DNA of 64,000 nucleotides, from positions 558,001 to 622,000 of the forward strand of contig NZ_CP156989.1 of the NCBI RefSeq assembly GCF_039880525.1. The letters are read 5' to 3'. Below, one piece after another: positions 48,112-51,403 of the stretch. The stretch comes from Agrococcus sp. ProA11 (GTDB lineage Bacteria; Actinomycetota; Actinomycetes; Actinomycetales; Microbacteriaceae). The notes under the pieces were generated by a model. The model did no database searches and was not told the DNA's origin. It was given only the letters and a program-made list of their open reading frames with translations. Each line of letters starts with the position of its first letter. Position 1 is the stretch's first letter. Made by a program: the position numbers and the translations under genes.

Positions 48112-49229
48112 TCGTCGGCGTCGTCGGCGGTGGGCAGCTGGCCCGCATGATGATCCCTGCCGCGGTCGCGCTCGGTGTCGAGCTGCGCGTGCTCGCCGAG
48201 AGCGAGGGCATGTCGGCGTCGCTCGCCGCCACCGCCGTCGGCGACTACCGTGACGCCTCCGTCGTGCTCGACTTCGCCGAGGGCGTCGACGTCATCACCT
48301 TCGACCACGAGCACGTGCCGCAGGATGTGCTGCGCGCCCTGATCGATGCGGGCGTCGCCGTGCACCCGGGGCCGGACGCGCTGCGCTTCGCGCAGGACAA
48401 GCGCGAGATGCGCGCGAAGATGGCCGAGCTCGGCGCCCCGCAGCCCGATTGGGCGCCGGTGGATGCGCCGGAGGATCTCGTGCGATTCCTGGCCGATCAC
48501 GGCGGCGTCGCGGTGCTGAAGACGGCGACGGGCGGCTACGACGGCAAGGGCGTGCGGGTCGTGCGCTCGGTCGACGATGCCGCGGACTGGCTGGAGGGCG
48601 CAGCCGCCGGCGGCCCGCGGCTGCTGGTGGAGGAGCTCGTGCCCTTCCGCCGCGAGCTCGCGCAGCTGATCGCGCGGCGGCCGTCGGGTGAGGCGGTCGT
48701 GTGGCCGCTCGTGCAGACGGTGCAGCGCGACGGCATCTGCGTCGAGGTGCTGGCGCCGGCGCCGCACGCGGCGAACATCCGGCCGGTCGTCGACGACGTG
48801 GCGCGCATGGTCGCCGCCGGGATCGGGGTCACGGGCGTGCTCGCGATCGAGATGTTCGAGACCAGCGACGGTCGGGTGCTCGTCAACGAACTGGCGATGC
48901 GGCCGCACAACTCCGGGCACTGGACGATCGACGGCTCGGTGACGAGCCAGTTCGAGCAGCATCTGCGGGCGGTGCTCGACCTGCCGCTGGGATCGACCGC
49001 GATCGTGGCCCCCGCGAGCGTGATGGTGAACGTGATCGGCGGCCCCGCCTCCGGTGCGATGACCGATCGCTACGCGTCGGCGCTCGCGGCGCACCCCGAC
49101 GTGAAGATGCACTCCTACGCGAAGGCCGCCCGGCCAGGCCGCAAGGTCGGCCATGTCACCGCCACGGGCGATGACATGGACGAGGTCGCCTACCGCGCCC
49201 GCGCCGCAGCCGCCTGCTTCGACGCCTGA
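48108..49229 (+). CDS. purK: N5-carboxyaminoimidazole ribonucleotide synthase
   Basis: First half of AIR carboxylation in purine synthesis. The 373-residue ATP-grasp enzyme begins IVGVVGGGQLARMMIPAA, with VLKTATGGYDGKGVRVV, the ATP-grasp RELAQLIARR and NELAMRPHNSGHWTIDG metal-binding motif. ATG overlaps the ugd stop by four bases. The partner gene purE, usually adjacent, is 1.67 kb downstream behind a DUF559 gene and repeats. Confidence 0.94.
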   Translation: MIVGVVGGGQLARMMIPAAVALGVELRVLAESEGMSASLAATAVGDYRDASVVLDFAEGVDVITFDHEHVPQDVLRALIDAGVAVHPGPDALRFAQDKREMRAKMAELGAPQPDWAPVDAPEDLVRFLADHGGVAVLKTATGGYDGKGVRVVRSVDDAADWLEGAAAGGPRLLVEELVPFRRELAQLIARRPSGEAVVWPLVQTVQRDGICVEVLAPAPHAANIRPVVDDVARMVAAGIGVTGVLAIEMFETSDGRVLVNELAMRPHNSGHWTIDGSVTSQFEQHLRAVLDLPLGSTAIVAPASVMVNVIGGPASGAMTDRYASALAAHPDVKMHSYAKAARPGRKVGHVTATGDDMDEVAYRARAAAACFDA

Positions 49230-49263
49230 CCGCATCCGCCACCCCGCCGGCGGGTGGAGAGGT

Positions 49264-49319
49264 CGAGCTTCCCCGAACCGCGCGCCTTCGCCGCGATCCG
49301 CGCCCGTTCGGGAAGCTCG
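49264..49319. repeat. 56-bp inverted-repeat element, copy A
   Basis: Ends CGAGCTTCCCCGAAC ... GTTCGGGAAGCTCG pair over 14 bases with one bulged C; the 27-base centre is GC-rich. Its centre resembles that of copy C near the other side of the DUF559 gene. Confidence 0.85.
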
Positions 49320-49384
49320 CCCCGCGCGCGGCCGCGCGCCCGAGCGCCCACGCCCGCGCATCCCGCGCACGCCGCACACCCGGT

Positions 49385-49440
49385 CGAGCTTCCCCGGATC
49401 GTGCGTGAGGAGCCGGAAACGCGCCTGTTGGGGACGCTCG
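49385..49440. repeat. 56-bp inverted-repeat element, copy B1
   Basis: Ends CGAGCTTCCCC and GGGGACGCTCG pair except for one mismatch. With six flanking bases it is 57 of 62 identical to copy B2, which starts 81 bp further on. Confidence 0.85.
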
Positions 49441-49465
49441 CGCTCGCCCGCGCGGCGCGCTCGGT

Positions 49466-49521
49466 CGAGCTTTCGCGGATCGTGCGTGAGGAGCCCGAAA
49501 CGCGGCTGTTGGGGAAGCTCG
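49466..49521. repeat. 56-bp inverted-repeat element, copy B2
   Basis: Ends CGAGCTTTCGC and GGGGAAGCTCG. The centre is nearly the same as in B1 while the outer left arm has drifted by two bases. Confidence 0.85.
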
Positions 49522-49600
49522 CGAGGGGGAGCCGCGAGGAGGGGGTTGCGAGGCGGGATTGCGTGGAGGCCGGATGTGCTGGATGTGTGACGCGGGTGGT

Positions 49601-50578
49601 CTACGCGCGAAACAGCCACCCCTCGCCGGCGATGGCGGAGCCCTCGAACCACGACGTGATCGGCGGAGGTTGCCGGCCGCTGTCCCAGCGCTCGCGAACG
49701 CGGTCCAGGATCGGGCGGAGTCGCTCCCGCGTCTCCGCCGGCGTCGTCACGATCAGCCGGTAGGGCTCGATCCCCAGGCGCTGGAAGAAGTTGTAGCGAT
49801 CGATGTCGCGCAGCCACTGCGAGCGATCCACCCGGTGCTGGTCGCCCTCGACCTCGATCAGCACTCTCGCGGGCCAGATCGCCGCATCCGGAGCGAGCTC
49901 CACGCCGTCCAGCACGACCGGCACGTTCCACCACACCGGCGGCGCACCGAGCACGTCCAGCTCCAGTCTCGCCAGCGTCTCGGAGCGAGACCGCGACCGC
50001 GGGCTGACGAGCTGCGCCGACGCCAGCAGGCGACGATGGCCGCGCCGTCGCCCGTGCGCGGCGATCGCCTGCTGCAGCTCGACGCGCGTCGCGAGCGGTC
50101 GGCGCTCGTTCACGACGGCGTCGCCGAGGGCGACGAGGTCGGCAGGAGCGAGGTAATCGACCCCGTCGACGAAGGTCTGCGCGGGGGTGGTGACGCGGAT
50201 GCCCTCGAGCAGCGTCACGGCGGTCGTGGCGAGCGATCGCTGGCGGCCGCGGAGGCGACGCCCGCGGGGTGCGTGCACCGGCGCCGGCGTGGTCGTATCG
50301 ATGCGATCGAGGGTCTGCAGTCGCGGGGGCAGCCAGAGCCCGTGCAGGTGGGCTGCGGTCGCGTGGCTGGCCCACGCCTCCGCACTCACCGAGGCGAGCG
50401 CGGCACGCGTCCGGTCGAAGAGGTCGAGTTCGGCCGACGCATCCGCCCAGACGCCGTGGTGCAGCTGCTGCACGCGCTTGCTGCGCAGCCGTCGCGCGCC
50501 GACCCCTGCTGCGGCTGCCTGCTGCGCCGTGAAGCACCGCTGCTGCAGCGATGCCGGGAGTGCCCATCCGTCCGTCAT
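49601..50578 (-). CDS. DUF559-type endonuclease-like protein (paralogue 2), inserted between purK and purE
   Basis: A 325-residue relative of the protein at 13698-14657 by domain order, not by close sequence. N-terminus: [20 protein letters not shown] and [10 protein letters not shown] (15-46) resemble an AbiEi-like winged helix. C-terminus: DUF559 nuclease-like core with [20 protein letters not shown] and [22 protein letters not shown] at 50578 begins the domain. It lies against the direction of purK and purE and is flanked by five 56-bp elements (three downstream, two upstream), so it looks like an inserted unit. Function unknown; nuclease activity and a defence role are inference only. Confidence 0.72.
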
Positions 50579-50654
50579 GGCGCGACGATCGCACGCGGGC
50601 CGGCGCCGCCGCGCGCGTGCGGGACGCGGTGTGGAGAACCCGCTCGCGTGCGCG

Positions 50655-50710
50655 CGAGCTTCCCCGAATCGCCCGTTCGGCACGGCATCCGCGCCGTTTC
50701 GGGAAGCTCG
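50655..50710. repeat. 56-bp inverted-repeat element, copy C
   Basis: Ends CGAGCTTCCCCGAA and TTCGGGAAGCTCG pair with one bulged base. The second half of the centre (ATCCGCGCC, then GTTTCGGG) matches copy A. Confidence 0.85.
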
Positions 50711-50726
50711 ACGCCGGCCGGCCGGG

Positions 50727-50782
50727 CGATCTTCCCCGGCGGGCGCGGTTGCGGGGGAAAAGGACCGATTCGGGGAAGCTCG
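50727..50782. repeat. 56-bp inverted-repeat element, copy D
   Basis: Ends CGATCTTCCCCG and TTCGGGGAAGCTCG pair apart from one mismatch; the centre is unlike the other copies although total length is again exactly 56. Confidence 0.8.
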
Positions 50783-50793
50783 ACGGGACCGGC

Positions 50794-50814
50794 GGGCGGG
50801 TGGGCGGGGCGGGG
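50794..50814 (+). other. G-quadruplex-type tract upstream of purE
   Basis: Five runs of three or four G separated by single bases, 73 bp before the purE -10 box. A second, weaker G-rich run follows at 50837-50850. Confidence 0.6.
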
Positions 50815-50886
50815 CGGCGCGGCTCGACGGACCGGCGGGTGGGGGCGGGGCGGCGAGGCGCGGTCGGCGCGCATAGGCGGCGGGCC

Positions 50887-50892
50887 TACCCT
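50887..50892 (+). promoter_or_regulatory. -10 box for purE
   Basis: TACCCT ends seven bases before the purE ATG without a ribosome site, showing that purE has its own promoter here and does not rely on purK transcription. Confidence 0.5.
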
Positions 50893-50899
50893 GGACGGC

Positions 50900-51403
50900 A
50901 TGGCAGCGCAGGTCAGCATCATCATGGGATCCGACTCCGACTGGCGGGTGATGGAGGCGGCGAAGGCCGTGCTCGACGAGCTCGGCGTGGCGTCGGAGGT
51001 CGATGTGGTCTCGGCGCACCGCACCCCGCAGAAGATGGTCGACTTCGCCCGCGGCGCGGCCGACCGGGGCGTGAAGGTCATCATCGCCGGCGCCGGCGGA
51101 GCGGCGCACCTGCCGGGCATGGTCGCGTCGATGACGCGACTGCCGGTGATCGGCGTGCCCGTGCCGCTCGCGACCCTCGACGGTCTCGACAGCCTGCTGT
51201 CGATCGTGCAGATGCCGGCCGGCATCCCGGTCGCGACCGTCTCGATCGGCGGCGCGAAGAATGCCGGCATCCTGGCAGCACGGATACTCGGCGCGTTCGA
51301 CGCCGGGCTGGCGACACGCCTCGACGACTACGCCGCCGAGCTCGAGCGGCAGGTGGGCGAGAAGGCTCAGACCCTGCGCGACCGCGTGGCGTCGGGCGCA
51401 TGA
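50900..51403 (+). CDS. purE: N5-carboxyaminoimidazole ribonucleotide mutase
   Basis: Converts N5-CAIR to CAIR after PurK. The 167-residue class I PurE has [15 protein letters not shown] (7-21), the catalytic SAHRTPQKM (His near residue 41), [16 protein letters not shown] and [25 protein letters not shown] start follows a leaderless -10 box. Stop overlaps the LytR-CpsA-Psr gene (ATGA). Confidence 0.95.

What the first reader, a model, noticed from the sequence alone, without database searches (positions are those of the whole stretch)
49264..50782. Five copies of an exactly 56-bp inverted-repeat element flanking a DUF559 gene
Copies at 49264, 49385, 49466, 50655 and 50727 are all 56 bp with ends close to CGAGCTTCCCCGA and TTCGGGGAAGCTCG. 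Ends are conserved while centres vary; B1 and B2 share one centre, A and C another, D has a third. Constant length with varied centre suggests a folded unit (hairpin of 11-14 pairs) under size constraint. Elements lie only around the DUF559 nuclease-like gene, three on its downstream side and two upstream. I do not recognise this family. It could be a REPIN-like mobile element, with the nuclease-like protein in the role that RAYT transposases play for REPs, or a structured RNA or recognition site tied to that protein.
Basis: partly seen in the sequence, partly recalled or inferred. Interest (0 to 1): 0.78.

Follow-up and report, generated by a model that had tools for sequence, protein, structure and literature searches.

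The report
Dispersed palindromes partnered with nuclease genes
A 56-letter mirror-image DNA repeat is scattered through the gaps between genes of an Agrococcus bacterium and appears to be paired with one DNA-cutting enzyme whose gene it brackets; many other actinobacteria carry relatives of this enzyme bracketed by mirror-image repeats of their own, which suggests an undescribed kind of two-part genetic element.

Summary
The five 56-bp elements are real, but not confined to the DUF559 gene: this Agrococcus genome holds 29, all 56 bp, at 13 intergenic places, neighbours mostly 16 bp apart. No RAYT transposase was found. The link to the nuclease gene still holds. Among 24 Agrococcus genomes six carry this ortholog, and they have the most elements (10-30, against 0-6 in the other 18). 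Elements bracket the gene in 6 of 6, at two unrelated loci, but none of 27 paralog loci fetched. Many paralogs have palindromes of their own: matching ones on both flanks at 12 of 27 Agrococcus paralog loci and 18 of 32 loci outside the genus, above controls; five of six such families tested are visibly dispersed; palindrome arms co-diverge with protein sequence. I infer that the protein, AbiEi-like DNA-binding region plus PD-(D/E)XK nuclease, recognises the palindrome and helps spread or maintain it. Whether as duplex half-sites or folded strand is open. It works like REPIN/RAYT but is not a member; binding and mobilisation are untested.

The parts
49264..49319 (.). 56-bp dyad element A, downstream of purK
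   Evidence: R1 66.4 bits
49385..49440 (.). 56-bp element B1
   Evidence: 62.3 bits
49466..49521 (.). 56-bp element B2, left end diverged (CGAGCTTTCGCGG)
   Evidence: 52.6 bits
49601..50578 (-). gene of the partner protein, 325 aa: AbiEi-like N-terminal part and PD-(D/E)XK (DUF559 / MTES_1575) nuclease part; stop codon 49601-49603
   Evidence: ORF; weak Pfam matches; PADLOC AbiEi models down to 5.2e-10; conserved nuclease residues
50444..50554 (-). AbiEi_4 match, residues 9-45
   Evidence: E 0.00051, 20.5 bits, below the Pfam cut-off of 25
49796..49888 (-). nuclease core, residues 231-261: D231, E242, E244, H248, Q254, D258, R261
   Evidence: these residues are invariant in 6 of 6 orthologs; D231, H248, Q254 and D258 invariant and E242 and R261 nearly so in 17 rows
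50655..50710 (.). 56-bp element C, upstream of the DUF559 gene
   Evidence: 59.7 bits
50711..50726 (.). 16-bp spacer between elements C and D, the usual spacing in the genus
50727..50782 (.). 56-bp element D, between the DUF559 gene and purE
   Evidence: 51.8 bits

Best explanation
This is one instance of a two-part element: a solitary gene for an AbiEi-like DNA-binding / PD-(D/E)XK nuclease protein, bracketed by copies of its cognate palindrome, plus further copies dispersed in intergenic DNA. Shown by comparison: the gene and its element family occur together, bracket each other and co-diverge, and different DUF559 clades have different palindromes. Inferred: each 56-bp element is a recognition site made of two inverted half-sites of about 24 bp around a variable centre of about 8 bp, bound through the AbiEi-like region, much as AbiEi antitoxins bind pairs of 23-bp inverted repeats; duplex binding is my preference for this genome, but a folded strand is not excluded for relatives. 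Inferred, less certain: nicking or cutting by the C-terminal domain at or near elements drives their copying, insertion and homogenisation in trans and moves the bracketed gene as an autonomous form; after loss of the gene the elements decay.
For: Dispersal and fixed geometry: 29 of 29 elements are 56 bp; of 15 neighbour gaps under 100 bp, 11 are exactly 16 bp; in A. baldri 10 of 11. Co-occurrence: the ortholog (55-100% identity) is in 6 of 24 Agrococcus genomes; these have about 30, 29, 20, 19, 11 and 10 elements, the other 18 have 0-6; perfect separation has probability 1/134,596 if genomes were independent, which they are not; on a crude two-protein tree the carriers fall in about five separate places, each beside gene-less relatives with 0-6 copies. 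Bracketing: 6 of 6 orthologs, 0 of 27 paralog loci fetched, at purK-purE (2 genomes) and acs-ridA (4 genomes); in the 1.5-kb flanks of 23 purE and 24 ridA loci no genome lacking the gene has an R1 element at E below 0.01. Generality. Half-sites: no pairing advantage of real over shuffled or swapped arms in G000 and G019; AbiEi binds two 23-bp inverted repeats 3 bp apart, and Rv2827c two such pairs with a 4-bp and a 13-bp gap (PMC7319586, passages). Turnover: element-free sites in relatives.
Against: No movement has been seen, and no target-site duplication or insertion rule was noticed. Flanks of 7 of the 13 A. baldri stretches match those of 6 of the 13 own-genome places, so much of the distribution is inherited. 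A. baldri, a gene carrier, is itself empty at two of the own-genome places, so an empty site does not mean the gene is absent. Domain matches for the window's protein are weak: AbiEi_4 and MTES_1575 both below Pfam cut-offs, no NCBIfam match; no structure could be predicted. Eight of the 27 paralog loci, apparently one clade, have no flanking palindromes. G013 has 6 elements without the ortholog. Against duplex-only reading: in G001 and G007 real arms fold better than swapped ones (7 and 4 of 1000 swaps as good), though both mix subfamilies. Model R1 was trained on elements of seven genomes, five of them gene carriers, and only 150 candidates per genome were scored, so counts elsewhere may be low; carrier G016 was not in the training set and still gave 11.
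Confidence: 0.56

Rival explanations
1. The palindromes are operator or chromosome-organising sites of an AbiEi-type regulator: the protein regulates its own gene and other genes through fixed sites, and mobility plays little part.
For: AbiEi-like N-terminus; geometry close to AbiEi operators; several places shared between species; elements C and D lie between the starts of the DUF559 gene and purE.
Against: Only 2 of 50 clusters were called between divergent genes, 20 convergent and 21 tandem (crude caller; window C-D and its A. baldri counterpart are divergent too but were called 'in gene'), so most sites are not in shared promoters. Copy number is 0-6 in relatives without the gene. Tandem clusters and species-wide sequence turnover are not regulon-like.
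Confidence: 0.23
2. REPIN/RAYT-type single-strand mechanism: the element is excised and inserted as a folded hairpin, with the DUF559 nuclease in place of the tyrosine transposase.
For: Outer 10-bp inverted ends can pair; four of five window copies fold better than most shuffles, z -4.7 to -1.8, the fifth z -0.1; across species both arms change together; in G001 and G007 real arm pairs fold better than half-swapped ones (7 and 4 of 1000 swaps as good).
Against: In G000 arm columns 11-27 pair less than in shuffles (288 of 493 cells against 311.8, 1000 of 1000 shuffles as high) and real elements fold worse than swapped ones (999 of 1000 as good); in G019 there is no difference (276 of 408 against 279.5; 364 of 1000). 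G001 and G007 mix subfamilies, and their non-redundant sets are small (n 8 and 4; 16 and 85 of 1000). No Y1 transposase in the genome.
Confidence: 0.18
3. They are bidirectional transcription terminators or 3' mRNA hairpins that spread by chance next to the nuclease genes.
For: Many lie close after called gene ends, often between convergent genes; at acs-ridA they stand where G011 and G017 have another hairpin.
Against: No T tract found over 49000-51000; exact length; sequence tied to the clade of the adjacent nuclease; gene-dependent copy number.
Confidence: 0.06
4. Free-standing homing endonuclease with its target sites.
For: VSR-like folds are used by some homing endonucleases (recalled).
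Against: The bracketing elements are intact rather than one split site, and gene-less genomes have no R1 element at either locus.
Confidence: 0.07

Closest known systems
REPINs and their RAYT (TnpA-REP) transposases (PMC3116915, passages read)
   Same: Short inverted doublets, extragenic, dispersed and in tandem clusters; length conserved while the middle varies; an enzyme gene with cognate repeats in its flanks.
   Different: No Y1 tyrosine transposase; the enzyme is a PD-(D/E)XK-type protein with an AbiEi-like region; hairpin covariation absent in G000 and G019; no GTAG or CGTC tag seen at the ends (by eye).
AbiEi antitoxins and their operators (PMC7319586, passages read)
   Same: Related N-terminal region (PADLOC AbiEi models); inverted repeats of about 23-24 bp in pairs; two pairs 13 bp apart there, elements 16 bp apart here.
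   Different: No AbiEii toxin gene beside it; a nuclease C-terminus; the repeats are dispersed over the genome, mostly not between divergent genes.
MITEs (definition recalled)
   Same: Short, non-coding, inverted ends, multicopy, intergenic, absent at corresponding sites of some relatives.
   Different: The whole element is a dyad of two half-sites; no target-site duplication noticed; the partner is a DUF559-type nuclease, not an IS transposase.

Membership tests
REPIN | two inverted repeat units, conserved total length, extragenic, multicopy | tested here: met
REPIN | compensatory changes that keep a hairpin | tested here: inconclusive
   not in G000 and G019; present in G001 and G007, where subfamilies confound; between species both arms change
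REPIN | partner gene is a RAYT (Y1 tyrosine transposase) | tested here: not met
   PF01797 absent from the genome; found in 5 of 14 control genomes
REP (GTAG/CGTC type) | tetranucleotide tag at the foot of the palindrome (recalled; title of PMC3733652) | tested here: not met
   element ends and flanks printed, by eye
AbiE type IV toxin-antitoxin | antitoxin gene followed by an AbiEii nucleotidyltransferase gene | tested here: not met
   gene stands alone between purK and purE and between acs and ridA
AbiEi-like DNA-binding proteins | N-terminal region related to AbiEi | tested here: met
   PADLOC AbiEi model E 5.2e-10 over residues 9-190; Pfam AbiEi_4 below cut-off
DUF559 / MTES_1575 PD-(D/E)XK nucleases | profile match over the cut-off and catalytic residues | tested here: inconclusive
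   window protein below the MTES_1575 cut-off and without a DUF559 match; 4 of the 10 other proteins scanned pass the DUF559 cut-off (L107, L110, L127, L112), of which the first three are aligned with it and share core residues
MITE | target-site duplication | tested here: inconclusive
   none noticed by eye in flanks or alignments of empty sites; no systematic test
homing endonuclease | insertion interrupts its own recognition site | tested here: not met
   intact elements on both sides, none in gene-less genomes at those loci

The most novel reading that the evidence does not exclude
A whole class of bacterial mobile element: the very common actinobacterial AbiEi-like/DUF559 nucleases each mobilise and maintain their own family of dispersed palindromes of about 50-65 bp, a RAYT/REPIN-like arrangement invented independently with an unrelated enzyme. 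It would give a function to many of the numerous DUF559 genes and an origin to many unexplained intergenic palindromes in Actinomycetes.
Probability: 0.55. Interest if true: 0.92.

Novelty: categorically new. Interest (0 to 1): 0.85.

Why it matters
A profile of this protein family matched 148 of 197 sampled Actinomycetes genomes, often several times per genome, with no established role known to me. If each clade has a cognate dispersed palindrome, both the genes and many unexplained repeats get one explanation, and it becomes testable whether a restriction-type nuclease with an antitoxin-like DNA-binding region can move or maintain short DNA. Natural pairs of protein and palindrome that co-diverge would also show how such a region reads DNA.

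Tried and rejected
Rejected: a RAYT in the genome; an Rfam RNA; each half-site as its own hairpin (no better than shuffles); a link of this element to every DUF559 gene (0 of 27 paralog loci); carriage of the protein on plasmids or phages (no match) or of the 56/57-bp element on viral contigs (none for exact ends); elements outside the genus (7 of 60 genomes have exact-end copies, all in the genus, 0 of 36 outside it); the GTCTCGATAC...CTACTCGACC palindrome as another DUF559 partner (seven loci with it, none with a DUF559 motif).

Limits and dropped rows. The 27 paralog loci are those fetched, of 78 paralog matches. L068 (53-bp weak hit; E 0.021, 0.002) was left out of the 29. L223 was dropped (contig end, the two flank windows overlapped, so 19 of 33 becomes 18 of 32; the cross-locus control of 68 in 1056 still includes it). 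L237 was dropped (no protein recovered, 34 to 33). Nine purE/ridA loci next to a DUF559 gene were left out of the controls (47 to 38). Criteria differ (span, flank width, match threshold), so their rates are not directly comparable. L107 and L116 pass only at 10 of 12 and may be chance. L101-L106 are in the 18 of 33; without them it is 12 of 27. Loci L220-L228 include related genomes with one palindrome family, which also raises the cross-locus control. The stretches were chosen mostly because their gaps looked short, so one search is not an unbiased sample; one of 20 (L261) was not aligned. One search compares flanks up to 1.8 kb and does not prove that both elements sit in the same gap. Two of the five clusters called 'in gene' were checked and lie downstream of stop codons; two more (window C-D, L076 3248) lie between the DUF559 gene and purE.

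Not obtained: a structure model.

Full report
What is there. They lie in the purK-purE gap around a solitary minus-strand gene, 49601-50578. The window is part of a 2.67-Mb genome.

A dispersed family. An exact 12-mer from the end occurs 17 times in the genome, against 2 for the reversed control pattern; two of the 17 (L010, L013) are not in elements. A covariance model (R1, from 40 elements of seven genomes) finds 29 elements, all 56 bp (one weak 53-bp hit left out), at 13 places; 24 of 29 are not at the DUF559 gene. Of 15 neighbour gaps under 100 bp, 11 are exactly 16 bp; in A. baldri (G019) 10 of 11, in G001 2 of 2. Elements lie between genes, often close after a called gene end: of 50 clusters in five genomes 20 convergent, 21 tandem, 2 divergent, 5 called inside ORFs and 2 undetermined (crude caller). 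Of the five, two checked lie downstream of stops and two are the clusters between the DUF559 gene and purE, which are divergent. Copies with exact ends were found in 7 of 24 genomes of the genus and 0 of 36 outside it.

Sequence of the element. The ends CGA(G/A)CTTCCC are nearly invariant; columns 11-24 and 33-46 follow a symmetric consensus, and about eight central bases vary. The inner consensus and length differ by species: 56 bp in 29 of 29 G000 and 24 of 25 held G019 copies, 57 bp in 11 of 15 held G001 copies. Across species both arms change together (covariation score 0.176 against 0.127, 0 of 500 shuffles as high). Within genomes the picture is mixed. In G000 real arms pair less than shuffled ones (288 of 493 cells against 311.8) and in G019 no more (276 of 408 against 279.5). 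A register-free test, folding real elements against elements with swapped halves, agrees: as good or better in 999 of 1000 swaps for G000 and 364 for G019. But only 7 of 1000 swaps match the real set in G001 and 4 in G007 (16 and 85 in small non-redundant sets); these genomes mix subfamilies. So the window's genome looks like two half-sites read independently, while a fold is not excluded in relatives.

The partner. No Y1 transposase is present. The 325-residue protein matches AbiEi models over residues 9-190 and, weakly, the MTES_1575 nuclease profile. Orthologs at 55-71% identity occur in five other Agrococcus genomes (G019, G001, G007, G009, G016); the other 78 DUF559 matches are at 37% identity or less. 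These six genomes have the six highest element counts of 24 (matches at E up to 0.01 halved for the two strands, 150 candidates scored per genome): G019 30, G000 29, G009 20, G001 19, G016 11, G007 10; then G013 6, G003 2, G011 2, G020 one or two, G014, G022, G006 and G017 one each, and ten with none. Elements bracket the gene in 6 of 6 and are absent, at E below 0.01, from the 27 paralog loci fetched. The gene sits at purK-purE in G000 and G019 and at acs-ridA in G001, G007, G009 and G016. Of 23 purE and 24 ridA loci searched, R1 elements at E below 0.01 are found only at the loci that hold the gene. On a RidA plus PurE tree (FastTree, no supports shown) carriers fall in about five places, each beside gene-less relatives with few elements, for instance G016 (11) beside G014 and G022 (1 each).

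Gain and loss. At six own-genome element places the corresponding stretch in two to four relatives, mostly picked for a short gap, was aligned. Most are empty. At one place three gene-less relatives are empty while A. baldri, which has the gene, is filled; at two others A. baldri itself is empty; at another, G004 is empty and gene-less G003 holds a 55-bp copy. Flanks of 7 of 13 A. baldri stretches match those of 6 of 13 own-genome places. So both turnover and vertical inheritance are at work.

A general rule. Searching the flanks of the 33 DUF559 loci then held showed other palindromes beside other clades. Palindromes on both flanks with matching arms occur at 18 of 33 loci (12 of 27 without the orthologs), against 1 of 38 purE/ridA loci and 12 of 300 random placements. 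Eight paralog loci, apparently one clade, have none. In the listed rows five of the six families lie at many places away from their gene: F1 (GAGGTTTTCGGCCC) in G008, G021 and G023, each with an F1-flanked gene; F2 in G012; F3 in G015 and also G002; F4 in G002 and once in G015; F7 in G008 and also G021. For F3 in G002, F4 in G015 and F7 in G021 I did not identify the matching gene; F5 was listed only beside its gene. A profile of the protein family matches 148 of 197 Actinomycetes genomes. At 18 of 32 loci outside the genus, fetched there and, both flanks share a palindrome, against 68 of 1056 cross-locus pairs (one locus dropped). In 400 kb sampled from G115, two copies of the palindrome found at one of its genes (L221) were found, none for the reversed or 20 shuffled motifs, and no DUF559 motif lies within 2.5 kb of them. 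Over 33 loci palindrome-arm similarity correlates with protein identity (Mantel r 0.69, 0 of 5000 permutations); this is partly shared ancestry, and for pairs under 50% identity r is 0.26.

How it probably works. AbiEi binds two 23-bp inverted repeats 3 bp apart, and Rv2827c two such pairs with a 4-bp and a 13-bp gap (PMC7319586, passages). Here half-sites of about 24 bp stand about 8 bp apart and elements 16 bp apart. I infer that the N-terminal region binds the half-sites and fixes the length, and that the nuclease domain acts at or near the bound DNA. That this spreads elements is inferred from dispersal, gene-dependent copy number and species-specific consensus; no movement has been observed and no target duplication was noticed.

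Against what is known. The arrangement resembles REPINs with RAYTs (PMC3116915, passages) but lacks their enzyme, and hairpin covariation is absent in the window's genome. It is not an AbiE toxin-antitoxin pair or a homing endonuclease with a split site, and no MITE-type duplication was noticed. Full-text searches pairing DUF559 with palindromes (2 papers), REPIN and RAYT with endonuclease (5 papers), DUF559, REP, MITE and AbiEi terms (25 of 6,730 listed), DUF559 or Actinobacteria (5 of 49,843 listed) and Vsr-like, REPIN and DUF559 terms (10 of 155 listed) showed, judging by listings, no paper that links these genes to palindromes; short passages of PMC3733652 and PMC12306157 were also seen. 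That library lacks most subscription journals and all bioRxiv preprints.

Verdict. The association of gene and palindrome is strong and appears general; binding, its mode and mobilisation are untested.

Noticed in passing
L179 (G007), L169 (G005), L178 (G017), purK-purE gap; corresponds to window 49230-50899: In three other Agrococcus genomes a different DUF559 paralog lies next to purE, and the DNA between them carries another palindrome with GTGGTC ends. The site seems to be re-used by this gene family.
   Followed up: partly
L141, L139 (acs-ridA gap of G014, G022); L092 3708-3998 (G001): Tandem palindromes of the type GTCTCGATAC...CTACTCGACC, unlike the window's family and with no DUF559 motif in the loci held. 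I recall similar repeats in other actinobacteria.
   Followed up: partly
L112, L115, L117, L122, L123, L124, L129, L130: Eight DUF559 paralogs, apparently one clade judging by similar N-termini, have no flanking palindromes; possibly a domesticated branch.
   Followed up: no
L105 1499-1555 and L106 1496-1552: In G009 and G016 the element downstream of the nuclease gene lies inside the 3' end of its reading frame, so element sequence encodes the last residues.
   Followed up: no
G019:C4 25.6-37.5 kb (L072, L073): A site that spans about 0.6 kb in the window's genome (L015) is about 11.5 kb wide in A. baldri, with an element pair at each side; G010 and G018 are also widened there, to about 9 and 12 kb, and have no R1 match at all.
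   Followed up: no
L015 near 1910-1998; L016 from 2044; L066 from 2166: Short tandem repeats directly beside some element clusters in the window's genome.
   Followed up: no
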